From Synechococcales cyanobacterium C42_A2020_086 (GTDB lineage: Bacteria > Cyanobacteriota > Cyanobacteriia > Elainellales > Elainellaceae): a DNA stretch of 64,000 nt. The notes under the pieces were generated by a model. The model made no database searches and was not told where the DNA came from. It saw only the letters and a list, made by a program, of their open reading frames with translations. The translations under genes and the position numbers were made by a program. Shown piece by piece: positions 905-24,708 of this stretch; positions within the stretch are counted from its first letter, which is position 1; each line of letters begins with the position of its first letter. The DNA lies in contig JACYLU010000009.1 of the NCBI GenBank assembly GCA_015272325.1, positions 1 to 64,000 of the forward strand, read 5' to 3'.

Positions 905-971
905 GGTTAACCTTGCCTCCGGGTGTAGTTTAGCCGCCCCCACCCCATCCGCCCCTCTTGTACGTCAGCCA

Positions 972-1703: not shown

Positions 1704-3782
1704 CTACCCCTCGACTGCGATAATCTCAGTGTACTCAAACTCGTTGGGGCTGCAACGCACCAGGGGATAGGATGTGCCGTTGAGGGTGATCGCATCTGGT
1801 TCCACATCCGCCTTGGGCGAGTGATAGACCAGCACATACTGCCGTCCCAAGTGGGGCCCCATTTCTTCTGCCACCTCGCCGCGCCACTGGGTCTTGCTCA
1901 CCAGCACCACCAGTTGATTAGCCAGTGTGGGGAGCGATCGCCCCACCTGCCGCCGATAGGTTTCGTCTAGGCTGCCAAAGGGCGAATCCATCACCATCGG
2001 GTAGTTGCCTGCATCCGGCGGCATTAGGTATCGGTTTTGCTGATCGCGGCGGCTCCAGTCGCGCACCCGGTCGATAATGGCGCCGATAAACGACAGACTC
2101 AAGACCTGGTTTTCTCCGGTCGAGGCCGGCACCAGCCGCTCTTGCCCGGTGGTGCTTTCGACTAGATGCAGCTCATACTTCTCCGTCAGGCGCGGCACAT
2201 AGGGCGCAACCACGATCCGCTGAAAAATCTCCCGCACCCGTCGTTCTAGGTCGCTGCGAAACACCCGATCCACATTCGTCTGCACTTGCTTGAGACGGGC
2301 GATCGCCTCTTCGGTGGCGGTAATCCGGCGCTGCGTCTGGGTCTGTCGCGCTTCCGTCGCCTGGTGTTTTTCGATCTGTCGCCGCAGATCCTCAATCTGC
2401 TGGCTCAGGTCTTTCACGCGCTGGTCGTTTTCGCCCTGCTCCCGGTTCAACGCCTGAATTTTCGCGTCAATGTCTTCATGGCGCTTTTCCAGGTTGCGGA
2501 TATCTTCGAGGGGGCTATTGCGGAGTTGCTCGTGGATGGTGTCTAGCTCCGTCTCGATGCGGGATAGGGTCTGGCGCAGCTCACCGATCTTGCGCTGCTC
2601 CTCGTCTACGGTTTGCCAAAAGACTGGAATCTGGCGGGCGATCGCCTCCATCTGCGCCCCCATGCGGATCACCGTCTCCTCCACGTCTGCCAGCCCCGCC
2701 CGCTCTAGATATGCTTTCACCTGATGGTGATGGTCGCTGCCAGCCTCTAGCACGGTGCCACAGATGCAGCGCTGGCGATCGAGCAGATCTTGCACAAACT
2801 GCTGCTTGATATCAGCAGGCAATTCGCCGCGCTGGCGCAGGCCTTGCTCTAGCGCCCGAAACTGGGCGATCGCCCCCGGCAGCAGCACCGTATAGCCCCG
2901 CGTCGAAAGGGTCGATTTCAGCCGCACTCGACATTGCTCCAGGGCATCTCGCACCGACTGCTTCTGGCTTTCTAGGTCATCGCGCCGCTTTTGCTCTGCC
3001 CGCACCGCCTCCGACTCGCGTAGTGCGTTTGCCACTGCCTGCCGCTGACGTTTGAACTGCTCAATTTCTGACTCAATCTCGCCCTGCCGCGCTGCGATTT
3101 GCTCCCGCTCTTCCTCCAGCGTTTGCTTTTGCTGCACCAGCGTTTGGGTCTCCGGGTCGCCAAACCGTTCCAGTTCTTTTTCTAGGGTTTTGCGGGCCTC
3201 TCCCAAATGGCGAATGGCGCGGGTCAACACCTCCACCCCCAACAGGGCCTTGGTGGCCTCGGCAATCTCCGTTTTCTTATTCGAGCGCACGATTTGCTCA
3301 ATCCGCTCTCCATCAAAGAAGAAGTATTGATGCAAACTCACGGGCAGAATGCGCCCAATTACGTCATCTAGGTGCTGCTCAGAAATTCGCCAGCGCCCAT
3401 CTTCCCCAGCATATTTCAGCGATAAGTCGCTCCTAGTCGGCACAATCTCCCCAGTGTCAGTCCGATAGGCACGGCAGGAACGACGGATGCGATATTGGGT
3501 AGCGCCATGCTCACAGGCCAATTCCACCCAGCATTCGACGGGTTCATTAACTGCTGCCTCTGCCAGCGCCCGCTTATTCACCAACTGATCCGGCGAGGCA
3601 AAGGCCGCCGTCGTCTTTTCATACAGCGCCCAAGTAAAGGCATTGAGCAGGGAGGTTTTTCCTGCCCCATTGTTGCCATGAATCACCGTTACCTTGCGAT
3701 CGCCACTGGCAGACAGTCGTAGCTCTGGTGTAGTGCCATAAAACTGGCGGAAATTGTGCAACTGAATCGACAGCAGCCTCAT
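1704..3782 (-). CDS. dndD: DNA sulfur modification protein DndD (SMC-like ATPase)
   Basis: DndD is the ATPase of the DNA phosphorothioation complex, in which DndC, DndD and DndE replace a non-bridging backbone oxygen with sulfur. This 692-aa protein starts with an SMC/Rad50-type half domain with Walker A GNNGAGKT at residues 36-43 and the QFYGTTPE and NAFTWALYEK blocks typical of cyanobacterial DndD. It continues into a long charged coiled coil (about 190-520) interrupted by a Cys pair in RCICG that recalls a zinc hook. It ends with a signature-like STGENQVLSLS and a Walker B-type PMVMDSPFGSLDE. The start overlaps the stop of the small upstream gene as ATGA, implying translational coupling. 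dndB, dndC and dndE are not in the window; they may lie beyond the left edge. Confidence 0.88.
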   Translation of the reverse strand: MRLLSIQLHNFRQFYGTTPELRLSASGDRKVTVIHGNNGAGKTSLLNAFTWALYEKTTAAFASPDQLVNKRALAEAAVNEPVECWVELACEHGATQYRIRRSCRAYRTDTGEIVPTRSDLSLKYAGEDGRWRISEQHLDDVIGRILPVSLHQYFFFDGERIEQIVRSNKKTEIAEATKALLGVEVLTRAIRHLGEARKTLEKELERFGDPETQTLVQQKQTLEEEREQIAARQGEIESEIEQFKRQRQAVANALRESEAVRAEQKRRDDLESQKQSVRDALEQCRVRLKSTLSTRGYTVLLPGAIAQFRALEQGLRQRGELPADIKQQFVQDLLDRQRCICGTVLEAGSDHHHQVKAYLERAGLADVEETVIRMGAQMEAIARQIPVFWQTVDEEQRKIGELRQTLSRIETELDTIHEQLRNSPLEDIRNLEKRHEDIDAKIQALNREQGENDQRVKDLSQQIEDLRRQIEKHQATEARQTQTQRRITATEEAIARLKQVQTNVDRVFRSDLERRVREIFQRIVVAPYVPRLTEKYELHLVESTTGQERLVPASTGENQVLSLSFIGAIIDRVRDWSRRDQQNRYLMPPDAGNYPMVMDSPFGSLDETYRRQVGRSLPTLANQLVVLVSKTQWRGEVAEEMGPHLGRQYVLVYHSPKADVEPDAITLNGTSYPLVRCSPNEFEYTEIIAVEG

Positions 3783-3976
3783 TGCACCTCCTCTTTGACA
3801 ATCTGCAAAATGTCGTCATTAATACCTATTGGATTCCTGAGATGCAGCTTGTCGTTCTCTGCTTTCAGCACTCGCCTGATCAAGCGCTTGATCTCCGGCG
3901 GAGAAGAGTCGATCGGTTCCATTACAGCATGAGCAGGAGAGGGGGTTGAGGATTGATACGGCTGTTCTGGAGTCAT
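3779..3976 (-). CDS. Small protein translationally coupled to dndD
   Basis: A 65-aa acidic and basic protein with a proline/serine-rich first third and a helical second half (EIKRLIRRVLKAEND, then INDDILQIVKEEVQ). Its stop codon overlaps the dndD start as ATGA, and it follows the restriction gene on the same strand. I do not recognise the family securely. Phosphorothioation and other modification loci often contain small proteins of this size, annotated only as system-associated. It does not look like DndE, which is larger and has a different conserved core. An internal ATG at 3922 could give a 47-aa form. Confidence 0.55.
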   Translation of the reverse strand: MTPEQPYQSSTPSPAHAVMEPIDSSPPEIKRLIRRVLKAENDKLHLRNPIGINDDILQIVKEEVQ

Positions 3977-4074
3977 AGTTCGTTTAGAGGATTCGAGTGA
4001 GTTGCAATGAATAAATAGGGTCTAAAATCGGCAATCCTAAAGTCGGCAATCCAAAATCGAGCAGATTTTGAGGC

Positions 4075-5932
4075 TTACAAGTCCAGCAGTCCATAGCGCT
4101 GTTGCAAGTCGAGCAATTGGCTCCGTGCTTCGCCCGCGTTGTCAGCTAGGTCGGCAAATTCCACAAAGCGGGTCAGTTCCTTTCTGAGGAAATTTCGCTC
4201 TACTTCTAAGGTTTCCCGCCCCAAATCGGGCGGCAACACAATCATGTCGAAAATGGTAGCGCGGCGTTTGCCCGGATGGGGTCGCAGCACTCGCCCCCGC
4301 CGCTGGATAAACTGCCGGGGGTTGCCGCTGCTGGCTAAGATCACTGCCGTTTCGATCGCCGGAATGTCTACCCCTTCATCTAGGCAGCGAATTGCCACCA
4401 GCCCTTGCAGTTCTCCAGTTTCAAACTGGTGCCGCAGGTCTTCGCGCTCGTCTAACGTGGTTTCAGCAGTGTAGGTGTTGACCCGATAGCCCAGGTCGCG
4501 CCCCAGCAGGCGGGTCACGGCTTCTAGCTGTCGCTGGCTTTCGGCGCTGGTGTCGTCTTCGACCGACCCGTCGCCGCAGTAAATCAGGGTATGGCTGGTG
4601 TCTAGGCGCGATCGCATGACCTCCCGCAGCGCCTCTAACTTATTCGCTGCTGCCCCCACCAGTCGCGCCCGCTGGTTGAGCAGTGCCGCCAGTCCCTCGT
4701 TTTCATCCGGGTCTTCCCCCATCGCCATCGCTCGCCCAATCCGCGTGGTCAATTCCGAATAGCGTTCTGTTTCTGATTCCGTCAGCTCAACCAAAATCGG
4801 GTAATACAAGTAGTGAACCAGCGCCCCCTGGGCGATCGCATCTTTCAGGGTAAATTCTGGCTCCAGCACCGGGCCAAAATAGTCCAGCAGCGCTTCTGTT
4901 CCCTGCTCGTCGAAGTAGCGTTCTGGGGTGGCCGACAGTGCCAACCGCAGCCCGATGTTGCTCGGCAGGCTGGCGGCCAACCGTCTGGCTCCTAGATTAT
5001 GGGCTTCATCGCCCACGATCAGGGTTCTCTTGGGAAAGTAAGGCAGTTGTGACTGAAAACCATCGGTGATCAGTGTAGCGTTGGTCGTGATCACGGTCAG
5101 AAAGGGTTGATGACCAGCCTTAACGTTATAAAGCTGATTAGATAAGCAACCCTGCCACTGATGCCGGCTCTCGAACACCAGGAGGGGGTCGGTGATGCCA
5201 AACTTGCGGCATTCCCGCGCCCACTGCTGCACCAGATGCCGATAGGGGCAAATGATAATCAGCGCTTGCAGTTGAATCGCTTGATAGAGTTTTGCGGCGA
5301 TCGCCAGCGCCGTAATGGTTTTGCCGCTGCCCGTCGCCATCTTCAAGGTGCCTCGACCGTTGTTGGCAAACCAGTTGGCGATCGCCTGCTCCTGGTAGGG
5401 GCGCAGCGTCAGCCAGAAGGGCAGGGTGGGAATACCCGCTGGCTGCTGGGGGCGATAGATGCTCTCAAACCCATAGCTGCCGCTCGACGATGCCACCTTT
5501 GGTTCTCGCGTTGGCGCTTCGGACGGACAGCGCTGGAGGAGCGATCGCCGTGCCGCTTCTGGAAAATCCAGCACCTCCAGATTAGGCGTTTCGTTGTCCC
5601 ATAGCCGCTGAAAATCCTCAGTTTTTTCTGCAATGCGTTCCGCATCGCCAAGCTGCCACGAACGGAAGACATCGATGCACTCAAAATTGTCGCTAAGGGC
5701 ATTGGCGCTTTCGTTGGCAGACCCCGTGAAGACGACCACCTGATCCTCTTGATCCCTAAAAATCCCCAGCTTTTCATGGTAGATGCCTTGCTGGTAAGGA
5801 TTCTGATGTACCGCCAGCTTAATCTCCAGCCGTTCCCGGCTCAAAAGCCATGCCAAGTAGCCCAGCCTGTCATGTTCGAGTTGCTCCAGTTCCCGTACCA
5901 GGACAGCTTCAATGACTTCCTCTCGCTGCCTG
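4075..5932 (-). pseudogene. DNA phosphorothioation system restriction enzyme (PLD nuclease + helicase), 5' truncated by IS
   Basis: The intact part encodes the C-terminal portion of a phospholipase D-type nuclease (YHEKLGIF, then TGSANESANAL, an HxK...SANE half-site) fused to a superfamily 2 helicase. Helicase marks are Walker A MATGSGKT, DEAH in VGDEAHNLG, ALSATPER, LIYCGDGS and QRRGRVLRP. This arrangement matches proteins annotated as the phosphorothioation-system restriction enzyme of cyanobacteria. The frame is open past the TTG at 5856 and runs through RQREEVIEAVLVRELEQ up to the IS5 terminus at about 5933, so the true N-terminus is missing. No matching 5' part is visible beyond the IS. 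Whether the remnant is expressed is unknown; TTG 5856 could restart translation but would lack part of the nuclease domain. Confidence 0.82.
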
Positions 5933-6860
5933 AGAGGATATTTGGAAATACGGAGAGGGGAAAAGCCTCATGCCAGTCTACGGAGCATCAATCGAATCAT
6001 CGCGATATGAATAAAGGCTTCAGAAGAAGCGGGTAAGCGCTCGTAATCGACATTGAGACGACGACACCAATGCAGCCAACCGTAAGTGCGCTCCACAGTC
6101 CATCGCTTGGGAAGCAAGACGAATCCTTGAGCACCCTCTGGTCGCGGCACTACCTCTAAAATCCAACGAAAGGTATCAATGACCCAATGGAGGAAATCTT
6201 CTCCAGAGAACCCTCCATCGACCCAAATGCGAACCAGTTGAGGCACTCGATGACGCTCTTGATGAAGCGTTTTGAGCAAGTGTTTGGCTCCTTCGCGCTC
6301 AGGTACACTAGCAGCCACGACCTGCACGGCAATCAACAATCCCAACGTATCCACGAGCGTAAAGCGTTTGCGCCCTTTGATTTTCTTGCCGCCATCATAG
6401 CCAACCGCTTGGTGCAATATAACAGCACTGGGAACGGTTTGGGAATCTAAACTGGCTGCTGTTGGGCTACTGTTGCGATGGGCATCGATTCTCACCCATT
6501 GGACAAGATGGTCGTGAATTCGCTTCCAACTGCCATCATCCCGCCACTAACGAAAGTAATAATAAACCGTCGAATAGGGCGGATACTCCTTGGGTAACAG
6601 TCGCCAAGCACAACCGCTAATGAGCACGTACAGGATGGCTTGAAGCACCAACATCAGATTGACCGTACGAGGTCTTCCACACTGCGATTCAGGGGTAAGA
6701 AGGGCTTCAAATAATTCGTATTGTTCAGGGGTAAGTTCGCTGACGTAGGCTAGAGTCATAGCTTCCTAGAGGGCTGTTTGGATTTAGATATATTCAGCCT
6801 AAAAACCCCGGGAAGCTTTTGTATATACTAGTGCACTTTGCTACTTTCCAAACATCCTCT
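5933..6860. mobile_element. IS5-family insertion sequence (about 928 bp)
   Basis: The element is bounded by imperfect terminal inverted repeats: AGAGGATATTTGGAAATA at the left and, read on the other strand, AGAGGATGTTTGGAAAGTAG at the right. It contains one transposase frame with a stop codon. The flanks just outside the repeats, tga on the left and taa on the right, do not form a clear target duplication. This suggests an adjacent deletion or recombination after insertion, consistent with the missing 5' end of the restriction gene next to it. Confidence 0.8.
5968..6759 (-). pseudogene. IS5-family transposase with internal amber stop
   Basis: The first 70 codons encode an N-terminal transposase domain ([41 protein letters not shown]). 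An in-frame TAG at 6547-6549 follows, and the same frame then resumes with WRDDGSWKRIHDHL and the DDE domain (DSQTV, GYDGGKKIKGRKR, VDTLGLL, VDGGFSG, WTVERTYGW). The two parts are in one frame, so a single nonsense change, for example CAG or AAG to TAG, explains the break. It is not a programmed frameshift. The copy is probably inactive unless readthrough occurs. Confidence 0.82.
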
Positions 6861-6957: not shown

Positions 6958-8151
6958 CTAATTCTGTGAAGGAATCAGGGATGTGTAGCGTGTAAGTAAT
7001 TCTTGAGCCATCTGCTTGTGTTTCTCAATTAATTCTGGTGGCGAAATGAACTGAGTGTTGCCCATAAAGCGACAAACCCAGTAGCAGAATTCATTGAGCG
7101 ATCGCCTCGGTAGCTTGACTGTGTAGTCTAAATACTCTAATCTGCCGTCCTTTCCTTTGGGTCCTGCATGAATTTTCTGGGCTGGATGTCGCTTCTCTCC
7201 TTCTAAAATAAAGCTCATGACCTCCGGGAAAAATCGAACCGTTACTTCTACAGGCTCTAGCTGACCCAGCTTTTCTAGACGCTGTTCCTCTGTCGTACCC
7301 AAAAACAAACCCCAACCCGTTTCTAACAAGCGATGAGCCATCTGCAAGCTCTGCCACTGCTGCTCAGTATTCTGTTGTTTGCCCTCTATTGGCTGGAAGT
7401 GGTCACTCAGGCGATCGAGTCTAGAGAGCGCTAGATGCCCACTTTCACAATCCTCATGTAGTAAATACCAGGCAATGTCAGCATAAACAAGCTGGAGTGG
7501 ATATACCTGCATATACCGAGTTTCGCCAGTGCGATAGGGATTGCGGCTCCGGAAGAGTTCGATCGCCTGTCCCTGAATAATGCTCTCTTCCAATGCCTCT
7601 AGCTTCTCAAATAACGTGCCTCGATATTGACGCTGTGCCATCATTTCTTCAGGATCGGTGTAAACAACAGCACGATCGATATGAGTTCGTACTGGATAAA
7701 ACAACTGCTCAGAGAGATGGAGTCCACGCAGTCGCCGTTCTAACCGTTCATACAGTTTAGTCACTTCAGGGTCGCGTTGATACCTAGCTTGGGAGTAAAG
7801 CGCATTGAGAGCAACCTGTAGCTCTTCCCGGTTCATTGCCCCAGTCCCTAGATAGTACCCCCATCGATACATGTGCTGTTCCAAAATTCCCCAGCGTCGC
7901 AGAACTCCTAAATCTTTACGCAGAGTTGGTAAAGAACAAGCAGTTAGGGAAATGCCTTGCTTACCTGCAACTTCCTGCAAACGCTGCTGAACTTCGACGA
8001 GAGCATCATGATGTTTTTCAGAAACCCGCTCAACTCTTTCAGCGCTACCTACTCCTGGATGCTGCACCAGTGTTGCAATCAAAAGCATCAGCCGCTCGAA
8101 GGCAGTGCGATCGCTATAGGGATGGGACGCTGGTGAGCAACTCTTTCTCAT
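6958..8151 (-). CDS. WYL domain-containing transcriptional regulator
   Basis: A 397-aa protein with an N-terminal helical, winged-helix-like part (SLPTLRKDLGVLRRWGIL at about 75-92) followed by a WYL-type sensor domain. The literal WYL triplet occurs in YADIAWYLLHED, followed by the typical LSRLDRLSD and later VTVRFFPEV. WYL regulators are commonly found beside phage-defence operons, where they bind DNA and repress until a nucleic-acid or nucleotide signal appears. The gene diverges from the coiled-coil/helicase operon across a 293-bp intergenic region, so control of that operon is the natural inference. The ligand is not evident. The start at 8151 is the first ATG and has no strong ribosome site to confirm it. 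Confidence 0.78.
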   Translation of the reverse strand: MRKSCSPASHPYSDRTAFERLMLLIATLVQHPGVGSAERVERVSEKHHDALVEVQQRLQEVAGKQGISLTACSLPTLRKDLGVLRRWGILEQHMYRWGYYLGTGAMNREELQVALNALYSQARYQRDPEVTKLYERLERRLRGLHLSEQLFYPVRTHIDRAVVYTDPEEMMAQRQYRGTLFEKLEALEESIIQGQAIELFRSRNPYRTGETRYMQVYPLQLVYADIAWYLLHEDCESGHLALSRLDRLSDHFQPIEGKQQNTEQQWQSLQMAHRLLETGWGLFLGTTEEQRLEKLGQLEPVEVTVRFFPEVMSFILEGEKRHPAQKIHAGPKGKDGRLEYLDYTVKLPRRSLNEFCYWVCRFMGNTQFISPPELIEKHKQMAQELLTRYTSLIPSQN

Positions 8152-8444
8152 ATGTCAACTAAAAGCCAATATTTTTTGAACATATCATAATGGCTCAGAA
8201 CTGCTCTTGACGAGAGCTTTATAACTATGACAATAATTGCTTTAAATATTGGGATTTCTTTGGAGACAGATGGGTACTCTTGCTAGAGTGAAATCTAAGC
8301 CAATCCAAAAGGCGGAACATTACAGCCTGCGGGATGCATTCATCACGAGGCTTATCCGAAGGCCTGCCAAGCTTTGGATTAGAGCAGTGCAATCGCCTCA
8401 TAGTGGTGGTTTTGTTTGTGTGTGTCCCCTGCATCTAACCCCTT
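8152..8444. promoter_or_regulatory. Divergent intergenic region between the WYL gene and the defence operon
   Basis: This 293-bp AT-rich stretch must hold the promoters of both the WYL gene and the operon starting at 8445. A possible forward promoter is TTGACG at 8209 followed about 18 nt later by CAATAA, leaving a leader of over 200 nt. I found no clear long palindrome that would mark the WYL operator. The promoter assignment is weak. Confidence 0.3.
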
Positions 8445-11400
8445 ATGATGAAAGACTGGCTAGTTTTAGGTTCTGTTGCCTTTGGTGTTGGGTTTAGTCT
8501 CAGTCTGCCAATTACTCGCAACATTAAAGACTCTGCGCTTGTAGGCCTGACAGCCATTCCGGCTGCAACCAGCGGAGTGTTGGTACTCAGTCGCCAGCAA
8601 AAACGGCAGATAGGGATATTATTCTCCTCACTCCAGGCAGAAGTCCAAACCCTTGAACAGCAGAAGCAATTACTAGACCAAACGATCGCCACCATCCGCG
8701 AGCAACAGCAAGGGGCAGAAGTCAGGTTAAGTCAACTCAATGCTCAATTAGAACAATCGCAGACGCAACTCAGCAGTCAGGCGCAGGAAAGCCAGACAAT
8801 TCAACAAGAACTGGAAACGCTGGAAACCCAAAAGCGATCGCTACACCAGGAAAATCTGCACATTGAGAGTCAGTTGCAAGAACTGAGAGCGCAAGAGCAA
8901 CGGTTGAATGCTTCTCTCTCTGCGATCGCCGTTCAAAAGGAGCAACTGGAAGTTCAGTTAGGGGCTGAAGAGCAGCAAAGACAAGCCATTCATCAGGAAG
9001 TGACGCTGCTGGAAACTCAAAGGCAGTTGCTTCAAACAGAAACCAAACGTACTGAGGATCGGTTGCGAGAACTAAGAGTACAGGAGCATCAGGCGAATGA
9101 ATTATTGGAAACGATTGCTCAATTAACAGCACAAAAACAAACCCTAGAAACTGACTTAAATCAACTAGGCATTCAACTTCAGTCTTTTCAGCAACAGCAG
9201 TCCAACTTGATTCAGGAGTTGGAGCAACTTTCCACTGAAAAGGGTGAGTTAACAGAACTTCTCCATCAACTTCAAGAACAGATCCAGGCAACTCAAACTC
9301 TCGGTCAGCAGGATTCTCTGCTTCTGGAGAACCCTCCACCAGAGACAATGGTGCGCTTAGATTCCCCCCTGGATAATCAAGATATCTCATCACAGCCAGA
9401 GAGAGGCGATGCGGCGGCAGAGAATGTTGTGCCAGAAGGAGAACCTTCACGAGAAACGCGGAATGTCTCCGTGCATCAAGGACTGCAACAGATCGAACCG
9501 TTGGAACAAGTTGAAGCGTTTGAGATTCCACAGTCTGCTGCTGAGTTCCGACTAGCGAATGCAGAGCATACACGCTGGCTGTGGGAAGGTGTAATTCTCC
9601 CTCGCTGGCAGTATCCTCCTTTTTTAGGCAGTGTGTACTTACCACGTTATGACACTGATGAAGTTTGGGGTACGGAAACGATTCTGGATATCGTGGGGGA
9701 CAACCTGCGACGAATCGGCATCAACAATCTGGAATATGACCGGATATTCAATCGCCTTGGAGATGAAACCCATCTCAACTGGCTGAAAATTCTGACGTTA
9801 GCCATGTCAGAATACGCCTATTATTCAGAGGCAGAGGGTGGCTTCTGGGAAGGATTATGCAATCGATTGCAATTGCCCTATCAGGGCGACAACCATGATC
9901 CAGTTCAGATGCTTAGAGATCTAGCACGAGAGGGGATTCATCTGCTCAAGCTGCCTCAAGCAGTGGGAGGCTACCCGATCGTTTCTACCTTCTGGTTGCA
10001 AAGCGGTATTCCCCGCCGCAATCTCAACCATTTTACTGAACTCGTTGCAGATCTGGTTGTAGAACGAGGATGGCAATATCTTCTGAATGCAGATGCCAAA
10101 CTTTTAGCCCATCAACTTTTGAGTACCTGCCAAAATCGCTATCCAGGGCGAACGGTTTTACGACGATTTCTAGAGTATAGCTGTGCTTCTAAAGCAGATC
10201 CCTTATCTGGAAAACTGCTGCAAAGTATTGCCGGAGTAGCCATTGCCCTGCGGGAGTACAATCTTCAACCCCAGGAAGTTTTGCTCAACCCTGCCCAACG
10301 ACAAGAATTTCTGCTCAATGCCCTTCCTCAATTCAATTTCTTCCTCAGAGATTGGGAAGCTTTGATTCAGCTCCTTACCCCTCGTCCCGAATGGAGTGGA
10401 CGGAGTCGTCCTGGTATGGGGCAGCTTCCCCTGGCTCTGATGCTGGATACAGAGGATCTGTTGATTCAACTCATATTACCCGAACAAACCCTACCTCATC
10501 CTGACTGGACAGCAGGAACTTGTTTTATTCATGAAGCAAACTGGCAAGGAGAAATTAGCGCCTCTGGACAGGTCGAGATTGAGGAATGTGTGTTACCTAT
10601 TTACAACAGCAGTGAGGAATGGCACTGGCAATTACAAGATGAACAGGGAAATACCCTTTATTCATGGTATTTGGAGGGGACTTCATCCGATGCTCCCTAC
10701 CTTTTGTTTGATGCCTGGACGGGCGATCGTCTGCTTCCTGATCCTCAACTTGTCAACAGCCAAGACATTTTCTGCTTTGCGCCAACAGGGACTGTAATTG
10801 AAACGGTAGGGTCTATCGAACCTGTAGAGAACGGGATGCTTCCCTGTAGCATTCAAGGATGGCAGGGTAGACGATTGCGGCTGACCGGACAAATTGGAGA
10901 ACTCAATCTTCAATTTGACCATTGTTCCACCTCGATAAGCTGGAGAGCTGCGGCAAACGAACCTCGACTGCGGGGCTTACGGATGCGAGGGCAAAATGCT
11001 CCTTATCTTGAGCCGCCTGTACTCTGGTATCCTCCTTGTTCAACACCACTATCTCTCACGCTATCCCTGCAAGAATGCTTCGTTCAGAATAATCCGCTGA
11101 CAATTCGGGAGACGATTTCGATTCCAGTAGGCGATCGATGGTATGCCATTCCTTTAAACCAATGGCTCTCCCAATCGGGGCACTACAATATTACTCTGAC
11201 TGCACCAGAAGAGGAATGGTCACAATCCTTCGAGGTGCAAGCTGCTTATCAAGTCCGGGCTGAAGATATTGCTGCTTTGCCTCCTGTGCAAGTGACTGAT
11301 ACTGACGGAGCGGTGGTTGATCTTCCAATACAGACCGATCGCACCCATCAATTCTGGTCTACCACACTGCTCATTACAGGATTGTGGACACTGGAACCTG

Positions 11401-12335
11401 TCAAACTGCTGCTCTCGGATAGGCAAAATCAGATCAGTCGTTCCTTCCAGGCAACCGCAACAGGGCAGTTGCGTGTGGAGCTATCCACTCTCCATGATGT
11501 GTTGCCGCCCTCCAATCAATATGTGCTGGAGTATCAACGAGCGGGACAGGCTCCTCAGCGATTGGTGGAACTGGTGGAAAACCTCCCCCTGTCTTGGCGT
11601 TGGCAGAATAACACTCTGGAATTTTCCGGCTTAAAAGCTGACCAAACCTATGCGGTGCATTGCTGGAACTTACTTCTGCCTCAGCAACCTTCTTTAGAAA
11701 TTGCCCTGGCTACTGAAGTTTCTGTCAAGGTATCGCTCGATTTGCCTCCAAGCATCTATTACCTGCAATTAAAAGCCTCTGACCATTCAATAGAAAATCT
11801 AGGCTGGTGGTGTAACTGCGATGATCCTTGTGATGTCTCAATTGATGCCGATCCAACACTGGCTAAATATAGTTACGCGATTTTAGACAATGTTTTAGTT
11901 CACGAGTTCCAGACTGCTGCTCAGGCTTTAACCTGGGATAAAAACTGGATAGAAACGATCGCCGCTTCCCTAAAAACCGAAAATAATCGTTTCCCAGCAT
12001 GGCTTGATGCCACAGCACTTTTGGCAAAACTTCAGTCAATGCTGACTCCACTGAATGGACAGTGGTACATGGTGATGACAACAGAAGGAAGGCGAGGCGA
12101 CTTTCAAGATGCTCTAGTAGAATCGATCGCTCAACATAATCTGTGGCACCTCATCCTGGACTTTCGGCGGCATCGTCAACGAGATAAACGCAATATTGCA
12201 TTTGTGTCTGTCACTGATATTGAGCTTGCTCGTCCTTATATCAGTCAAGTTCCTTACTTTGAGCGGATGGGTCGGGCACCCTTAAGACCGGAGGAAACCA
12301 ACTTATTGCTGGGGTCAGGAGAGGTTGAGAGATAA
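8445..12335 (+). CDS. Membrane-anchored coiled-coil protein of a DruE-type defence operon (DruH-like position)
   Basis: A 1296-aa protein I cannot assign to a firm family. Residues 4-22 and about 30-48 are hydrophobic (WLVLGSVAFGVGFSL; LVGLTAIPAATSGVLVL), consistent with a membrane hairpin. Residues about 50-285 are a Gln/Glu/Leu-rich coiled coil with repeated segments such as LETQKRSLHQEN and LETQRQLLQTET. A variable acidic linker follows to about 360. The remaining 900 residues look folded: a helical part with WLWEGVILPRWQYPP and IPRRNLNHFTELVADLV, then Trp-rich beta-type repeats to the C-terminus. The stop is 2 nt from the next ATG, so the three genes form one operon. Its place before a DruE-like helicase is that of DruH in type III Druantia, but homology is not shown. 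The predicted anchor suggests action at the membrane. Confidence 0.6.
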   Translation: MMKDWLVLGSVAFGVGFSLSLPITRNIKDSALVGLTAIPAATSGVLVLSRQQKRQIGILFSSLQAEVQTLEQQKQLLDQTIATIREQQQGAEVRLSQLNAQLEQSQTQLSSQAQESQTIQQELETLETQKRSLHQENLHIESQLQELRAQEQRLNASLSAIAVQKEQLEVQLGAEEQQRQAIHQEVTLLETQRQLLQTETKRTEDRLRELRVQEHQANELLETIAQLTAQKQTLETDLNQLGIQLQSFQQQQSNLIQELEQLSTEKGELTELLHQLQEQIQATQTLGQQDSLLLENPPPETMVRLDSPLDNQDISSQPERGDAAAENVVPEGEPSRETRNVSVHQGLQQIEPLEQVEAFEIPQSAAEFRLANAEHTRWLWEGVILPRWQYPPFLGSVYLPRYDTDEVWGTETILDIVGDNLRRIGINNLEYDRIFNRLGDETHLNWLKILTLAMSEYAYYSEAEGGFWEGLCNRLQLPYQGDNHDPVQMLRDLAREGIHLLKLPQAVGGYPIVSTFWLQSGIPRRNLNHFTELVADLVVERGWQYLLNADAKLLAHQLLSTCQNRYPGRTVLRRFLEYSCASKADPLSGKLLQSIAGVAIALREYNLQPQEVLLNPAQRQEFLLNALPQFNFFLRDWEALIQLLTPRPEWSGRSRPGMGQLPLALMLDTEDLLIQLILPEQTLPHPDWTAGTCFIHEANWQGEISASGQVEIEECVLPIYNSSEEWHWQLQDEQGNTLYSWYLEGTSSDAPYLLFDAWTGDRLLPDPQLVNSQDIFCFAPTGTVIETVGSIEPVENGMLPCSIQGWQGRRLRLTGQIGELNLQFDHCSTSISWRAAANEPRLRGLRMRGQNAPYLEPPVLWYPPCSTPLSLTLSLQECFVQNNPLTIRETISIPVGDRWYAIPLNQWLSQSGHYNITLTAPEEEWSQSFEVQAAYQVRAEDIAALPPVQVTDTDGAVVDLPIQTDRTHQFWSTTLLITGLWTLEPVKLLLSDRQNQISRSFQATATGQLRVELSTLHDVLPPSNQYVLEYQRAGQAPQRLVELVENLPLSWRWQNNTLEFSGLKADQTYAVHCWNLLLPQQPSLEIALATEVSVKVSLDLPPSIYYLQLKASDHSIENLGWWCNCDDPCDVSIDADPTLAKYSYAILDNVLVHEFQTAAQALTWDKNWIETIAASLKTENNRFPAWLDATALLAKLQSMLTPLNGQWYMVMTTEGRRGDFQDALVESIAQHNLWHLILDFRRHRQRDKRNIAFVSVTDIELARPYISQVPYFERMGRAPLRPEETNLLLGSGEVER

Positions 12336-12337
12336 CG

Positions 12338-13258
12338 ATGTGGAACAGTAAAATTCTGCACCTGTTGAGTCATCATCGGCAACCGGGACAGCCAGTCCTA
12401 CCAGCAGCGCTGAGCATGACTCAAATTACGTCACTGCTGCGCCAATGCCTTGATCCGGCTCAGCCGACCGAGCAAATTGTGGATGAGGTACAGGAATCCC
12501 TACGCGAATTAGAGGCACAGAACGAAATTTTCAGGGCATTCGGTAATCGTTACTGTATGGCTCCACCTACCTTATTGGCACTAAACCGAGAGAACCTGGT
12601 TGGATGGCGCTTTCGAGGCGATCGGGCATATCTTAGCCTTGCACACGAAACGTTGAAAACAAGGCAACAGCCGACTGAAGAGAAGCTGCATTCTGGTATC
12701 AGGAATTTCGATCGGGCCAAGAGCAGGCTTCAGGATAGGAAAATTCGTTTGCTGACGTTAGAAGAAGTCATTAACGAACTCCCCAAACCTCAAAAGCCAC
12801 CGTATTTTCTTCTGCAAGGGCACCAATACCCACTGACTTGCTCGGAGCTTTGGCAGATGAGCGATGTGAAGCAGTATGTGCCCACCTATGCTGAACAAAA
12901 AGATCGATGGCGATCGCCCACACCCCAAACCTTGAGCAGTGAAAGTCTATTGCGATTGCCAGACGAAACATACCTTTGGTTTGAAGCAGAGGAGTTTTAC
13001 AAAATTGAGCCTAATGCGGCAATTCTTGCCATGTTTTATCTCGATCGCTGTGCTCAACAACCACTTCGCATTGTTTGGGCAAATGCGGCAATGAACCAAC
13101 TCAATCTACAAAACATCTGGTTGCCCTATGCCCATTTCCAATGGCTCCGACAACTATCCGAACCCATTGAAGGACACCGCAGAGTATTTTTTGTTTCTCC
13201 TGCCAATCGCCCCCTGGTGGAAGCCGTTTTTCAATATCTAGGATGTGATATACGATGA
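12338..13258 (+). CDS. Conserved operon protein of unknown function between coiled-coil protein and helicase
   Basis: A 306-aa soluble protein with no signal peptide or membrane segment. The first 100 residues (MTQITSLLRQCLDP, EIFRAFGNRYCMAPP, LLALNRENLVGWRFRGDRAYL) look like a small helical, winged-helix-type module. The C-terminal part (ETYLWFEAEEFYKIEPNAA, WLPYAHFQWLRQL) is mixed. Its start lies 2 nt after the upstream stop and its own stop overlaps the helicase ATG as ATGA, so all three products are probably made in fixed proportion. I do not recognise the family. An accessory or adaptor role for the helicase is inferred from coupling only. Confidence 0.6.
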   Translation: MWNSKILHLLSHHRQPGQPVLPAALSMTQITSLLRQCLDPAQPTEQIVDEVQESLRELEAQNEIFRAFGNRYCMAPPTLLALNRENLVGWRFRGDRAYLSLAHETLKTRQQPTEEKLHSGIRNFDRAKSRLQDRKIRLLTLEEVINELPKPQKPPYFLLQGHQYPLTCSELWQMSDVKQYVPTYAEQKDRWRSPTPQTLSSESLLRLPDETYLWFEAEEFYKIEPNAAILAMFYLDRCAQQPLRIVWANAAMNQLNLQNIWLPYAHFQWLRQLSEPIEGHRRVFFVSPANRPLVEAVFQYLGCDIR

Positions 13259-16200
13259 CAAACTATCTCGACCCCATTGCCGCCACAGAAAAGCCTCGTA
13301 ACGATTTCATCCGCTATTTACTCACAGCCTATCCCTTACGAGATTCAGCCTTGCGAACCGCATTTGAGCAGGAACTTCAGCAACGCGGCAGTATTTGGCA
13401 ATCGCCTTACCTAGAGGGTTCCCAACCTTATCGTCCAGATTGTAGTGTGGCAGATTTGGTGGCTGAGGGAGTGTTACATGCGGAAATGTCCCGTCTATTT
13501 CTGCCCCACCGCCCTCTCTATCAACATCAAGCTGTAGCAGTACGCGCCGTAGTTGAACGTCAAGAGAATATTATTGTTGCGACTGGGACAGGTTCCGGTA
13601 AAACGGAGTGTTTCCTGTTACCTATGATTGATCAACTTTTGAAAGAAGAAGGCGAACTGCAAGCCGGAGGTGTGCGTGTCCTGATTCTTTATCCCATGAA
13701 TGCGTTGGTCAATGATCAGGTCAAACGACTGCGCCAGCTCCTTTGCCGTCAAAGCAGCAATCGTCCCCGCATTCAGTTTGGGTTTTACACCAGCCGCACA
13801 GAGAAGGAGGAAAAAGCAGCTCAACAAGCCCTAGCAGATGAACTTCGCGCCTATAGCGATGATGAACTGTTGAGTCTAATTCCATCAGCAGAACAAGCAG
13901 AGATGAGGGAACTGGTTACAGGATCTCGACGAGAAGTGGTTGTGACGAGAGCCTGTGAACTTGTGCAAGAGATTCAAACGCTTTAACGAGCAGAAATTCA
14001 GCGGAAGCCGCCCCACATCTTAGTCACCAACTACTCGATGTTGGAACATATGCTGATCCGCCCTAAAGAGCGTGGAACGATTTTTGAGCGATCGGCAGGA
14101 TTGTTCAAAATGCTGGTGGTGGACGAGGCACATTCCTACGATGGCTCTACGGGCACTGAAGTGTCCATGCTGATTAAGCGGCTTAAAACCGCTGTCCAAG
14201 TTGAGTCCTCTGGACAAATTCGCTGTATTGCAACCAGTGCTAGTTTAGGCGATGAATCAGTCGATTCGCAGGTGATTGAATTCGCCAAGCAATTATTTGA
14301 TGAACCATTTGAACAAGTAGTACGGGGCACTCGTGTATCTGCTACTGAGAGGTTGGAAGAACCCTATGCTTTACCTGAAGGATTAAGTGAAGAAGAGGTT
14401 TATGAACACTTCTATACTCTCGAATTACCCAAACTAAACGATCCTATAGAGGATTGGGAAAAGCAACTGAGTTACCTTGTCCCTAATGAACGGCTACAAG
14501 TTGCTAAAGCTAAAGCGACTGAAGCACCTCCCGAAGAACAAATTCACCGATTTCTCTGGTACGCCCTCAAGCAGCATCCCACAGTTCATAATCTAATTCG
14601 CCTGCTAGCTCGATCGCCCCAACCTTGGGAACAGATTGCTCAATCTGCTGAACTCTGGAAATTCCCGACCACCGTCGAAGGTGAAATTCCACCAGAAGAA
14701 CAGAAGAACCTACAGCGTGCTTTGGCACACCTCATTCAGTTAGGCACGTTAGCACGAGAAAACTTAGAGGATTTGCCCCTGCTTCCAGTTCGTCTGCACC
14801 TGCTATTCCGTAGCATTGAGGGATTATATGCTTGTGTCAATCCACACTGTCAGCCACCAGGCGCGCAAGTCCCTCCTGCTCCCAATCGCCGCTACGGACG
14901 GGTATATCTCAGTGAACGAAAGACTTGCGAAGATTGCAAGGCTCCAGTTTTGGAATTGGCAAGCTGCCGCAAATGTGGACAGGCTTATAGTCTGATGCAT
15001 CTGGGTGAACAGGGAGAATTGCTTTCTTTGCCGCGATCATTAGAAGCGGTTGAAGATAACAAACGTATTTATGTGCTTACCTCCGGACCTCTCGATAGCA
15101 TTACTCTGGATGAAGAGGAAGAAGAGTCTGACAGCGTTGATGAAAACACAGGAATCTGTCTGTTAACCCGCAGGCAAGGATGGATTGGTCGGGTTGCTCG
15201 TACTCCTGAACAACTTCAGCAAGCGCCTGAATCGGAGAAATTTTCGCTTCTCTGGCATATTCCACCGAACACTAAAAGTACAGAGGGTGGATACTTGTCA
15301 CGTTGCCCTGCTTGCGCGGCTGGACGAACTCAAACCTCCTCTATCGGGCGCTTCATTTCCTATACAGATGCGCCACTAGAAGTCATGATTGATGGATTGT
15401 TTGAACTTTTGCCTGATCCGACATGGGAAGAGGGACAACCCACAAAACGCAAATTGCTGACTTTCTCAGATGGTCGCCAGGATGCTGCGTTTTTCTCCTC
15501 TGATTTTCAGCGCACCCATACGGAAGCTCTCTATCGTCAGATGGTATGGCACGCTTTCCAGGATTGTCGGGATGAAGAGAAAGTTGCCTCCGTCAAACAA
15601 GTGGAAGACAAGTTAGTCGAACACTTTCTGAAGGTTTCAATTCCTCATCCCGATCGCGATCCGGAATGGCATCATCATAGTTATGTTGCCAATGATGAAC
15701 TGGATGAGGAGCCAAAAAACCCGAAGGACTGCAAAGATCATGCTCGTAGCCGTGCTAAAGAATTGCTGCTGCGAGAATTTGGCTTACCTTCGGCTCGGCG
15801 CTTTTCGATCGAAGCGTTGGGATTGCTCGCGTGTCATCTCGATTGGCAGGGTTACTCAGGTGTCCAGAAACTATGCGATCGGTTCAATATCTCCAAAGCA
15901 GAAGCCATTGTATTTCTAACTGCACTCACCGACTTAATCCGGCTTTCTGGAATTGTCAATGTTGAGAAGCCATCTGATTATTTTCCAGAAGTCGGTGGAG
16001 TAGAGGATGTTCGCCCTGGAATATTGGACAAATCAGGAAAGGTCAAAAAGTTCCTCAAGCTGCAAAAAGGACAGGGGGATGCAAAAGAAGCAGTTTCCTT
16101 CTGTGCATACAAAGCTGGTAACAATCAACTGATCCGTAGCACTTTTGTAAACTATTGTGAGAAGGTATTTGGATTAACGGCAAAAGAGCAGGGAGAGGAA

Positions 16201-19200
16201 TTGAAAGATATTCAACTCTGGCTCTACGAAGAGGTGTTGCTAGGCAGCAATGTTCTAGCAAAGTACGATAAAGATGGTCGTCAGCTCAACTGGGGACTAC
16301 TCAATATTCAGCAGACCTCTGAGGACTGGTGTCGTTGCAATACCTGCCAGCAAATCTTCCATCTTCCTGGCTTTTCTTTAATTGAAGAACAGCCCAAACT
16401 CAATGTCCGGAAATGTCCTGCGTTCAGATGTAACGGAGAACTGCGTCCTTTCCCCTTGGAGCAGATGCAGGATGATCACTATCGACATCTGATTCAAGTC
16501 AGACATATGCTGCCACTGAGGGCACAGGAACATACTGCTCAATTAGAAACAGATGACTTAGCACATCGAGAAAGTCGTTTTCGGCGTGGTCAGACAAACC
16601 TACTCAGTTGTTCCACAACACTGGAGATGGGTGTTGATATTGGAGAATTGCAAGCCGTAGTTCTCCGAAACTTTCCGCCTCATGTGAGCAATTATCAACA
16701 ACGGGCAGGAAGAGCAGGACGACGGACGGATGGGGTAGCCGTAACCCTCATGTATGGGCAACGTCGCCCTCACGATCGCTACTACTTCGAGCAGCCTGAA
16801 CGTTTAATTGCAGGTAAAAACCAAATTCCCAAACTCGATCCACGTAATTTCCAGGTGCAAGAACGCCATATTCGGGCAGAATTACTGGCAGAATTCTTGC
16901 GAAAAGACGATTTAGGAGCAGAAGACGTGAAGATTTTTGTCTTTCTTGCTCTTCCCAAAGATGCGCCCACCTCCGCGCCTAATTTTACGCCGCCGAATAG
17001 CTCTCCAATCACTCAATTTCAGCTATGGTTACGCAGCGATGATGCCCGTCAACTCACTGACTATTGGCTCAATAAGCTAGGAGGAAAGGAACGATCGCAT
17101 ACACAAGTTTTAGAAGATTTTAGCGATCGAATCGAGGAATTCCAAAAACAACAATTGCAGGACTGGGATGCGTTGGTTGAAGTATTACTGAGTCTGCAAC
17201 AACGATTAACAGACCCTACAGAAGCTAGGAATTTAACTACAATTGCAAAACATCTTGCCAAAACTCAAGCGGAGCTAGACAAAATTGCAGATCGTCGTTT
17301 ACACGATGAACTTGCTCGCGCTAGTATTCTCCCAATCTACGGATTCCCCATTGATGTAGTACGGCTAATGACTGGAAAGCGCCAACATCGCCTAGAGCGC
17401 GATCGTCGCCTTGCACTGGGTGAGTACGCTCCAGGACAGGAAATTGTAGTGGACGATCGAGTCCATACCAGCGTAGGAGTTGTCAGACCTGAAAAATTGT
17501 TGGAGCAATACTATTGGGTTTGCCAGAACTGCAATTATTTCACCTCCAGTCTAAAGAAGAGCGATTACTACGCAACTTGCCCAGTATGCAAAGCAGCAGC
17601 TTCGGCTCCGAAGCCTCGGCTTTACAAAGTTCCTGGTGCATTCACAACAGATTGGCGACAAAATCCTAAAGTCACGCCCTATAGCAAACCCATGCGCCAA
17701 CCCACCTCTCAAGTTTTCTTAGCGAAAGAAGGAGACATCTCGGTTTGCTTATCTTCAGCTTCAGACCCATACACGCTTGTATATAGTCAAGCTGGTCGAT
17801 TTTTCCTAGCTAATCAGGGTCCTGCTCAGGATGGAAAGGGATTTAAGAATCCTGGTTTTGCACTCTGCCGCTTCTGTGGACGAGACCTGAGTGAAGATGT
17901 TTGGAAGCAAAGGGCGAAAGTAAAAGTCAGCAAAAAACAATCAAAGCTCGGCAAGTCTTCAGAATCTGTTCCCTCGACCATTCCTCATAATCACCCAATC
18001 AGCGATCGTCCCTGTTCAGGTGGATATGAAAGAACACATTTAGGACACGATTTCTTAAGTGATTTACTCAAACTCCGCTTTAGTCAGGCAACTCATCCTC
18101 CCGCATTATTTGAACCTGTTGCTCATCTGGCTGACGGGGAAGAAATAGCTTCAGTAGAGGCAGATGGATCGTCATCCCAGCCAACTGGAATGACATTCTG
18201 GCGATCGCTCACGTCTGCTCTTTTAGCTGCGGCATCTCAAGTGATTGATGTGCCAAGGACTGAATTGGATGGATTATTCCGTCCTTCCGAAGATCGAGAC
18301 GGTACAGCAGAAATTGTGATCTATGACAATGTACCAGGTGGTGCAGGCTACAGTCGCAAAATTGGCGAACGCTTCCGCGAGGTACTGCAACAGGCATATC
18401 AGATTGTAGAATCCTGTTCCTGTGACAGCAGTTGCTATGACTGTTTGCGAACCTATTCCAATCAATTCTTTCATCACGAACTCGATCGCCATCAGATAAA
18501 AGCATTTCTGCAACCGCTGGTTGAACAGATAAATCCAGAGCTATTTCCAGAACTCCAAGATTTTGCTGCCGATGCCAATCAGGTCACTCATCCTCAAATT
18601 ATGGCTCAGTTCGGGGCATGCTGCCGCGCTGCCAGTTCTACCAGCATCATGGGCTTACCTCAACTGGAAGAGCCATTTACCCTGAAGCGACTCACAGAAA
18701 TCATCAACGCTCTACAAAACCGAAATGACTCTCTAGAGCTAATAGTGCGTCATTTACCTCAACCGATTTCAGATCAAGAACGAGTTCTCCGCAAACGCCT
18801 GCAACAATGGATTGATCAGGGAGCGCTCAAGCTTTACGTGCTAGACCAAGATATTCTTCCAGAACTGTGTCTGAGCAGCCAGTGGGAACGCTATCGTATT
18901 GCCTTACGGTACTGTCCTGCTGAGGGCGATAACCCCGCCTACTGGCTAAAAACAACAACTGAGCGAGGTGTTACCCAAGTCTTCGATCGCCTGAAACAGT
19001 TGCAGCAGCGAGCTAAATCTGTTGCTGCTCAAGAGTTGATCGATCGAGATACTAACGTAGTGTTTCCCGATCGCACCTGGAAGAATCTCAGTATTGATCA
19101 ACTCCGTCGCCAACTAGGTTTAGAGCAGGTTCTAGTCGGAAGCAAGATTTCACAAGTGATTTATAGCGATCGTTATCTTAACGCATTTGATGCCCAGTTC

Positions 19201-19539
19201 TTAGCCGATTTATTGAAGGGTGACTGGCTGGAGTCTAACACTCAAGTCACCATTCACATTCAACAACTTTATAAAGAATACCGCTCAAATGATACCAGTC
19301 GTCGAGTAACAATGGAGAAAGTACTTGCCCAGCAATTGGAATTGCAGCCTAACGTTAAGATGCGTCCCTATGGACGCAACTATGAAACTCTTTCACACAG
19401 CCGGGAGTTAACTATTTGCCGTCAAGATAAGCAGGTTTATCGAATGTTGTTTGACAAAGGAATGAATTTTTTAGAGAAAACTAACGGCACCTACCACGTT
19501 ACCGAATCTACCTACGTGGTTGTGACGAAACAGAGATGA
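13255..19539 (+). pseudogene. DruE-like DEAD/DEAH helicase with DUF1998/MZB region, interrupted by one in-frame TAA
   Basis: The frame of about 2094 codons encodes a superfamily 2 helicase. It has Walker A ATGTGSGKTE, VVDEAHSYDG (DEAH), CIATSASLGD, a helicase C block ending NYQQRAGRAGRR, several Cys pairs (CEDCKAP, CRKCGQA, CPACAAG, CRCNTCQ), and the DUF1998/MZB signature IYDNVPGGAGY with CSCDSSCYDCLRTYSNQ. The size and layout match DruE of Druantia systems. A C-terminal extension ends in ELTICRQ...YRMLFDKGMNFLE. A TAA at 13984-13986 splits it into 243 and 1833 aa. The frame is the same on both sides, and the codons between the stop and ATG 14038 encode conserved helicase sequence (PPHILVTNYSMLE). 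The stop falls between Walker A and DEAH, so restart at 14038 would give a helicase without an ATP-binding loop. Nonsense mutation, sequencing error or recoding are the options. Confidence 0.8.
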
Positions 19540-19734: not shown

Positions 19735-19746
19735 GTGGAAAAGAAT

Positions 19747-20037
19747 ATGCAGCGAAAACAATACAGCGCCGAGTTCAAGACCAAAGCCGCCCTCGAAGCC
19801 ATCAAAGGACTAAGAACGGTGAACGAGATTGCCAGTGATTTAGGGGTACATCCGAGCCAAATTGCACTGTGGAAGAAACAAGCCCTTGATGCTTTACCAG
19901 AAGCGTTTTCGAGCCATCAGGGACAGCATCAAAAAGCTCAGGAGGATTTAACGGCACAACTCTATCAACAGATTGGACAACTGAAAGTCGAGTTGGACTG
20001 GCTGAAAAACAAATCTGGAGTTGTCGGTGGACGTTAA
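19747..20037 (+). CDS. IS3-family transposase OrfA (helix-turn-helix)
   Basis: A 96-aa OrfA starting MQRKQYSAEFK at ATG 19747. It has the transposase_8 helix-turn-helix (ALEAIKGLRTVNEIASDLGV, SQIALWKKQAL) and a C-terminal leucine-rich coil (LYQQIGQLKVELDWLKNKS) used for dimerisation. In IS3 elements OrfA is fused to OrfB by frameshifting to make the active transposase. OrfB here is broken, so this copy is a remnant. No clear terminal inverted repeat was found on the left. Confidence 0.8.
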   Translation: MQRKQYSAEFKTKAALEAIKGLRTVNEIASDLGVHPSQIALWKKQALDALPEAFSSHQGQHQKAQEDLTAQLYQQIGQLKVELDWLKNKSGVVGGR

Positions 20038-23796: not shown

Positions 23797-23922
23797 GTAG
23801 TAATAATCCTAAAGCAATTATGAAAAAGTCTAAGTAAACAGTCTAAGTGAACCGCATAACTCAACGGGAACAGGAATCCATTTCTTCTCCAAGAATTGGC
23901 CTCCCATTCCCGCCTGCGCCGA

Positions 23923-24435: not shown

Positions 24436-24708
24436 ACTATCTCCTTGAGTTCTCGCAATTGACCAACTAGTGAATAACGAAACAGTTCACTCTACGGGTC
24501 GTCAAACGGTTGGATGATCTAGTTTGCTAGTTTGATGATCTATCCATCAAATTACTCCTTGCCTGCGACAGCACAGGGTTGGCGGAATGAGTGTCATTCG
24601 AGAGTGTCACCAAAACAGAACTACAATCTGAGTGGTCCTAAATTGCAGCGCATGCATGACACTAATTTCACATGGCAATCTCAACTGCTGTGCTGCCGAC
24701 AGGAAGGT

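What the first reader, a model, noticed from the sequence alone, without database searches (positions are those of the whole stretch)
6958..19539. WYL-regulated operon: membrane coiled-coil protein, 306-aa protein and DruE-like helicase, possibly a new defence system
Seen: three genes are tightly coupled (2-nt gap, then ATGA overlap) and diverge from a WYL regulator next to a Dnd locus. The helicase has DEAH motifs and a DUF1998/MZB signature of the DruE type. The first protein has two hydrophobic segments, a 230-residue coiled coil and a Trp-rich 900-residue body. Known: Druantia systems are defined by DruE, and WYL regulators commonly accompany defence operons. Inference: this could be a Druantia III-like variant with an extra middle gene, or an undescribed relative that acts at the membrane. 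I cannot tell which without searches.
Basis: partly seen in the sequence, partly recalled or inferred. Interest (0 to 1): 0.82.

Follow-up and report, generated by a model that had tools for sequence, protein, structure and literature searches.

The report
Druantia-like three-gene defence operon, cyanobacteria
This is a mobile three-gene antiviral defence cassette of cyanobacteria, built on the known Druantia helicase but with two partner proteins that match no defence-system model, and the copy in this genome carries one stop codon that probably disables the helicase.

Summary
The operon is real. A divergent WYL regulator faces A (1296 aa), B (306 aa) and C (a DruE-like helicase). The nearest relative has TCA there; its own apparent breaks are single N's in its assembly.

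The WYL-A-B-C set is conserved in about 18 cyanobacterial loci. Window and sister match at 87% over 12.6 kb, and the match stops at the ends of the module, so it moves as one unit. A 21-bp block sits upstream of every WYL gene found and of nothing else fetched.

C is a strongly supported clade of its own inside the Druantia branch of YprA helicases and usually keeps the C-terminal PLD nuclease motif. A matches no DruH, DruF or other Druantia component; its predicted layout (helical, Ig-like repeats, C-terminal alpha/beta domain) resembles the one published for the DruH sensor. B is a remote homologue of DruL from Druantia type IV, which standard models miss. The membrane coiled coil is an optional add-on.

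Verdict: an undescribed Druantia subtype, with a probable sensor (A), a DruL-like adaptor (B) and a helicase-nuclease (C). The window copy is probably freshly broken. New variant of a known kind.

The parts
6958..8151 (-). WYL-WCX transcriptional regulator, divergent from the operon
   Evidence: Pfam WYL and WCX over cut-off; 47-94% identical WYL in the same divergent place in 12 relatives
8153..8173 (.). Candidate operator TGTCAANTAAAAGNNAATATT just upstream of the WYL start codon
   Evidence: One hit in the 64-kb window, none in 100 shuffles; exact hits in 10 other WYL loci and in no unrelated locus among 113; one mismatch each in L012 and L007
8445..12335 (+). Gene A, 1296 aa: large protein, family undescribed in Pfam, NCBIfam and PADLOC
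   Evidence: Only coiled-coil matches; conserved core in about 18 cyanobacterial loci
8457..9314 (+). Optional N-terminal part of A: two hydrophobic segments (aa 5-23, 31-49) and coiled coil (about aa 54-290)
   Evidence: Present in window, L005, L013, L012; a different single hydrophobic segment plus coiled coil in L011; absent elsewhere; dN/dS 0.327
9525..12332 (+). Conserved core of A (aa 361-1296): alpha-helical part (about 9561-10379), tandem Ig/FnIII-like beta domains (about 10422-11819), C-terminal alpha/beta part (about 11853-12314)
   Evidence: AlphaFold2 model, pLDDT 67.9, pTM 0.36; Foldseek to fibronectin type III E 6e-6; 30-37% identity across the family
12338..13258 (+). Gene B, 306 aa: N-terminal winged helix and alpha/beta C-terminal part; remote homologue of DruL
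   Evidence: Model pLDDT 72.5, winged-helix matches; profile link to DruL in both directions
13255..19539 (+). Gene C: DruE-like YprA-family SF2 helicase with MZB/DUF1998 and C-terminal PLD-type region, interrupted at codon 244
   Evidence: PADLOC DruE models best; relatives intact at 2076-2127 aa; alignment
13585..13605 (+). Walker A / motif I of C (GTGSGKT)
   Evidence: Alignment with DruE III proteins
13984..13986 (+). In-frame TAA (codon 244 of C)
   Evidence: TCA in sister locus L012, a single C-to-A difference; no stop in the other relatives
14122..14133 (+). DEAH box (motif II) of C, downstream of the stop
   Evidence: Alignment
18211..18447 (+). MZB (MrfA Zn-binding, DUF1998) domain of C
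   Evidence: 73 bits, cut-off 24.2
18562..19536 (+). C-terminal PLD-type region of C with HxR...DxG motif (HSREL...DKGM)
   Evidence: Aligned with the C-terminus of DruE III, whose PLD domains are described in PMC13192584; missing in L022 and G187

Best explanation
WYL-A-B-C is a mobile antiphage defence cassette, an undescribed subtype of Druantia in cyanobacteria. Shown: gene content, conservation, purifying selection, the helicase's clade inside Druantia, the remote DruL relationship of B, the Ig-like build of the model of A, and the stop codon in this copy. Inferred: A recognises a product of infection through its Ig-like repeats, as proposed for DruH. B, a winged-helix protein, binds DNA and couples A to the helicase. 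C loads on 3'-tailed single-stranded DNA in replication intermediates, unwinds it and, through its PLD domain, cuts it. The WYL protein controls expression through the 21-bp block. In this genome the TAA cuts C between motif I and the DEAH box, so this copy is probably inactive unless the TAA is a sequencing error.
For: Co-occurrence in about 18 loci with the same order and overlaps. Homology between window and L012 ends at the module's ends, 6982-19523, at 87%. dN/dS 0.08-0.15 for the core genes. C clade SH-aLRT 100 inside the Druantia branch. SF2 motifs, MZB and PLD motif kept. B-DruL: hhalign score 36.8 over 247 collinear columns against a maximum of 25.3 in 60 block shuffles; B's profile ranks only DruL proteins next after itself among 3,077 ORFs (E 0.006-0.36), and DruL's profile ranks B proteins next after itself apart from one other ORF, L058 (E 0.016). 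Ig-like A. Neighbours in relatives: HamB-like, Avs4-like, AIPR and DpdF-like genes. DruH as Ig-domain sensor and DruE as 3'-tail helicase with PLD nuclease: PMC13192584.
Against: No antiphage activity has been tested. A shows no sequence relation to DruH; the shared layout rests on a low-confidence model (pTM 0.36), and Ig-like repeats are common. B-DruL E-values are weak one by one. The exact place of C inside Druantia is unresolved (AU p 0.056 with DruE3, 0.375 with DruE1/4). Two relatives (L022, G187) lack the PLD region, so cleavage by C cannot be universal.
Confidence: 0.68

Rival explanations
1. It is a highly diverged Druantia type III: A is DruH changed beyond sequence recognition, B a lineage-specific addition, and the system works as DruH-DruE does.
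For: C has a PLD-type C-terminus like DruE III and high DruE3 scores. A has the same order of parts as published for DruH. The local A-DruH alignment is unusually long and nearly in register (386 columns, 76-508 against 81-518).
Against: Score 20-22, below block-shuffled controls (up to 27.6). No match to 11 PADLOC DruH models or NF038336 that ring strongly on real DruH. C outside the DruE3 clade, AU p 0.056. B is DruL-like, and DruL is absent from type III.
Confidence: 0.25
2. It is a branch of Druantia type IV (DruF-DruL-DruE) in which DruF has been replaced by A; B does what DruL does, and A plays DruF's part.
For: B is DruL-like and lies directly upstream of druE in both. C grouped with DruE1/DruE4 is not rejected (AU p 0.375).
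Against: A-DruF profile comparison at noise level. C is a separate clade from DruE4.
Confidence: 0.35
3. The operon is a housekeeping or plasmid-maintenance helicase cassette (DNA repair or plasmid partition), not defence.
For: On three plasmids in different hosts, beside parAB-like genes in one; YprA/MrfA relatives act in repair; earlier annotation calls A 'chromosome segregation ATPase-like'.
Against: Patchy: 3 of 386 cyanobacterial genomes by B. Defence genes beside it. The helicase lies in the defence branch, not the repair branch, of the YprA family. The 'segregation' label reflects only the coiled coil.
Confidence: 0.1
4. The window copy still works: the TAA is a sequencing or assembly error, or the two halves are made separately and assemble.
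For: The rest of C is open, no excess of amino-acid change after the stop (dN/dS 0.082 before and after); an ATG lies at 14038.
Against: A clean single-base nonsense change at a serine conserved in relatives. Separate halves would split the first helicase domain between motif I and the DEAH box.
Confidence: 0.3

Closest known systems
Druantia type IV (DruE-DruF-DruL; PADLOC, PMC8565338)
   Same: A DruE-family helicase with a DruL-like winged-helix protein encoded directly upstream
   Different: No DruF; a 930-residue-core Ig-like protein A instead; helicase in its own clade, usually with a PLD region
Druantia type III (DruH-DruE; PMC13192584, PMC13316683)
   Same: DruE-type helicase with MZB and C-terminal PLD motif; a large partner with helical, Ig-like and C-terminal parts encoded upstream
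   Different: No detectable DruH homology; third gene B; helicase outside the DruE3 clade, though AU p 0.056 does not firmly reject a joint clade
'Druantia Type III-like' branch of the YprA tree (Bell et al. 2025, PMC12458937)
   Same: DruE-like helicases of a separate branch whose C-terminal nuclease (PLD, Vsr) is variably present, as in this family
   Different: That paper's main text and legends describe no A, B or WYL partner and no such operon in cyanobacteria; its supplements could not be read, so this clade may be an unlabelled part of that branch
ARMADA type I / II (PMC12458937)
   Same: YprA-family defence helicase in the same wider branch
   [quoted passage not shown] none in this operon
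Druantia type I (DruA-E)
   Same: DruE-family helicase at the end of an operon with a protein of about 360 aa just upstream
   Different: No DruA-D match; B has no profile relation to DruD

Membership tests
YprA/DruE family of SF2 helicases | RecA1 and RecA2 motifs with MZB/DUF1998 Zn domain | tested here: met
   Pfam DEAD, Helicase_C and MZB over cut-offs in window and L006 C; motifs aligned; interrupted in the window copy only
Druantia (any type) | DruE as the shared component | tested here: met
   DruE models are the best PADLOC hits of C; C falls inside the Druantia clade
Druantia type III | DruH (YjiT family) partner | tested here: not met
   No hit of A to DruH models or NF038336, which score 2544 and 979 bits on a real DruH; profile comparison at noise
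Druantia type III | Helicase inside the DruE3 clade | tested here: inconclusive
   Separate clade in both trees; joint clade AU p 0.056
Druantia type IV | DruL | tested here: inconclusive
   B misses PADLOC's DruL models, but profile comparison links the two in both directions: homologue, not a typical DruL
Druantia type IV | DruF | tested here: not met
   No PADLOC hit; A and B against a 13-sequence DruF profile at noise
Druantia types I and II | DruA, DruB, DruC, DruD / DruM, DruF, DruG | tested here: not met
   No PADLOC hit for A or B; no profile relation to type I partners
ARMADA / DISARM | BrxHII-like helicase, PglX-like methyltransferase; separate DrmB and DrmC | tested here: not met
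   No such genes in the operon; C carries its own MZB
CoCoNuT (McrBC-like) | CnuB GTPase or its inactive homologue with coiled coil | tested here: not met
   A has a coiled coil but no GTPase or McrB match in Pfam, NCBIfam or PADLOC
Any antiphage system | Protection against phage | not testable with these tools
   Needs an infection experiment

The most novel reading that the evidence does not exclude
A fifth Druantia type, confined as far as found to cyanobacteria: A (Ig-repeat sensor), B (DruL-like) and C (DruE with PLD), under a WYL switch. It combines the DruL adaptor of type IV with a DruH-like sensor layout of type III, which would suggest that all Druantia types share a plan of sensor, winged-helix adaptor and helicase.
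Probability: 0.55. Interest if true: 0.65.

Novelty: new variant of a known kind. Interest (0 to 1): 0.55.

Why it matters
Druantia types are told apart by partner proteins that look unrelated. Here one partner proves to be a hidden DruL homologue and the other has the layout of the DruH sensor, so the types may be variations on one plan that structures can test. It also gives cyanobacteria, whose defences are little studied, a compact system with a candidate operator, and shows that PADLOC models record only an orphan DruE at these loci.

Tried and rejected
A as DruH, DruF, DruL or a Druantia I partner: all profile comparisons at noise. The local A-DruH alignment is long, but its score lies below shuffled controls, so it is not counted as homology. 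SMC/JetC/LmuB matches of A: coiled coil only. PI_PP_I Pfam match of A: under cut-off. Phage baseplate-J-like fold for A: the viral Foldseek search gave Ig/FnIII-type and tail proteins at TM about 0.1, nothing specific. Viral contigs: no relatives of A or B. Frame breaks in the sister locus L012: single N's in its assembly, not pseudogenisation. L070 (type I restriction and SspE/HEC-06-like partners) and L068 (Mokosh) are other helicase systems. Relaxed selection after the stop: none seen.
Full report
WHAT IS THERE. Codon 244 (13984-13986) is TAA, and the same frame goes on to 19539 (also flagged, '1 TAA').

THE STOP. In the nearest relative, Elainella saxicola (L012, about 88% identical in C), the codon is TCA...CTTTAACGA... 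here...CTTTCACGA... there. The residue is a serine in every homologue shown. The stop falls between motif I and the DEAH box. L012 at first looked broken too, but its extra frame breaks coincide with single N letters in that assembly. No other relative listed has a stop in C. dN/dS between the two copies is low before and after the stop (0.082 both), so nothing shows long decay. I read the window copy as freshly inactivated, or as carrying a sequence error; these cannot be told apart here.

CONSERVATION. A scan of 84,980 species genomes with A found 13 loci, all cyanobacterial; plasmids gave six more records, and genome searches added G280, G187 and G334. With flank available, A is followed by B and C in all of them except G334, where B is gone and only a C-terminal scrap of C remains. 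A divergent WYL is present in 12 of the relatives. The window and L012 match at 87.45% over 6982-19523, and the match ends at the module's ends: the flanks are unrelated. This is the best sign that WYL, A, B and C are one transferable unit. Frequency is low: 3 of 386 cyanobacterial genomes by B. No relatives were found in viral contigs.

REGULATION. A 21-bp block, TGTCAANTAAAAGNNAATATT, lies 2-8 bp upstream of the WYL start codon. It occurs once in the window, with none in 100 shuffles, and exactly in 10 other WYL loci of this system and in no unrelated locus among 113; L012 and L007 carry it with one mismatch. It is a candidate WYL operator; binding is not shown.

HELICASE C. Complete relatives have 2076-2127 residues. 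Domains are DEAD, Helicase_C and MZB. PADLOC's DruE models are best but nearly tied: L006 C scores DruE1 785, DruE3 725, DruE2 548, DruE4 520. Trees put all C proteins in one clade (SH-aLRT 100) inside the Druantia branch, apart from DruE3, DruE1 and DruE4. Its nearest neighbour within Druantia is open: AU p is 0.056 for a clade with DruE3 and 0.375 with DruE1/4. The C-terminus aligns with that of DruE III, including HxRxL...DxG, where PMC13192584 places an active PLD domain. L022 and G187 lack this part. PMC12458937 reports variable nuclease ends in 'Druantia Type III-like' helicases; this clade may belong there.

PROTEIN B. No match in Pfam, NCBIfam or PADLOC. The model (pLDDT 72.5) has an N-terminal winged helix and an alpha/beta C-terminal part. 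A profile of 17 B proteins against a profile of 16 DruL proteins (15 loci, plus L064) gives score 36.8 over 247 collinear columns running to both C-termini; 60 block-shuffled controls reach at most 25.3, the reversed control 18.3, and unrelated families stay under 20. In plain HMM searches of 3,077 ORFs the next-best hits of B's profile after itself are all DruL (E 0.006-0.36). DruL's profile gives one unrelated ORF (L058, E 0.016) and then a run of B proteins (from E 0.043). B and DruL are also encoded in the same place, directly upstream of druE. I take them as remote homologues.

PROTEIN A. Only coiled-coil matches. The coiled coil and two hydrophobic segments form an N-terminal add-on in the window, L005, L012 and L013 (a different version in L011); the other A proteins begin at the core, so a membrane location is not general. 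The core model (pLDDT 67.9, pTM 0.36) is helical at model residues 13-285, beta-rich at 300-765, alpha/beta at 777-930; Foldseek finds fibronectin-III/Ig arrays (best E 6e-6, global TM low). DruH is described as helical ends around three Ig-like domains and as the likely phage sensor. The sequence comparison with DruH fails, so this is likeness of plan, not membership. A diverges faster across the family than B or C (mean identity 41, 48, 56%), as reported for DruH relative to DruE.

CONTEXT. Relatives sit among defence genes: HamB-like helicase with a caspase domain (L014; ORFs of the same length in the same place in L017 and L023), Avs4-like proteins (L015, L018), an AIPR gene downstream (L014; same-length ORFs in L015, L017, L018, L023), DpdF-like and another YprA helicase (L007). 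L005-L007 are plasmid-borne. In the window, Pbe genes lie to the left.

MECHANISM. Shown elsewhere for Druantia III: DruE unwinds 3'-tailed and forked DNA and cleaves long DNA, and DruH is the likely sensor (PMC13192584); in mycobacteria both are needed and a phage tail protein triggers (PMC13316683). By analogy, A senses infection, B binds DNA or bridges, C unwinds and cuts, and WYL sets expression. The analogy is strong for C, fair for A, weak for B.

NOVELTY. No paper found describes this A-B pair, but supplements of PMC12458937 were out of reach and subscription journals are not held. I call it a new variant of a known kind.

Noticed in passing
window 1704-5856 (-): PbeC (998 bits) and PbeA (699 bits; first 111 profile positions missing) form a remnant phosphorothioation-dependent restriction pair beside an IS5-family transposase fragment (5968-6495). 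No DndC over the curated cut-off in the genome.
   Followed up: partly
window 5968-6495 and 19735-20037: Transposase fragments (IS5 family; IS3/HTH_Tnp_1 type) bracket the WYL-A-B-C module.
   Followed up: partly
L014 5130-8366; ORFs of equal length in L017 4930-8166 and L023 4929-8165: A caspase (Peptidase_C14) domain fused to a HamB-like DEAD helicase, next to the WYL gene: possibly a Hachiman-like system with a built-in protease.
   Followed up: no
L014 20721-21941; 406-aa ORFs also in L015, L017, L018, L023: An AIPR (abortive infection phage resistance) family gene lies downstream of the helicase in L014, with same-length ORFs in the same place in four other loci: possible accessory or neighbouring system.
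   Followed up: partly
L070 (G018:C14): A DruE-like helicase in an operon with type I restriction R and S subunits and an SspE/HEC-06-like protein: an unusual combination.
   Followed up: no
L007 5804-10498 (-) and 22068-26738 (-): On the Pseudanabaena plasmid the module is flanked by a RecQ/DpdF-like plus UvrD/GajB-like fusion helicase and by a second YprA-type helicase.
   Followed up: partly
L074 (G334) 8985-12556 (-): Degraded copy of the system: A intact (952 aa), B gone, only a C-terminal scrap of the helicase left.
   Followed up: partly
window 23056-26803: By eye, an iron-stress cluster like isiA (24709-25812), flavodoxin isiB (23923-24435) and a hydrolase (23056-23796), with a Fur-like regulator at 26249-26803; not tested.
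   Followed up: no
window 305-1661 (-): Two adjacent genes that look like the cyanobacterial Uma2/DUF820 nuclease-like family; not tested.
   Followed up: no
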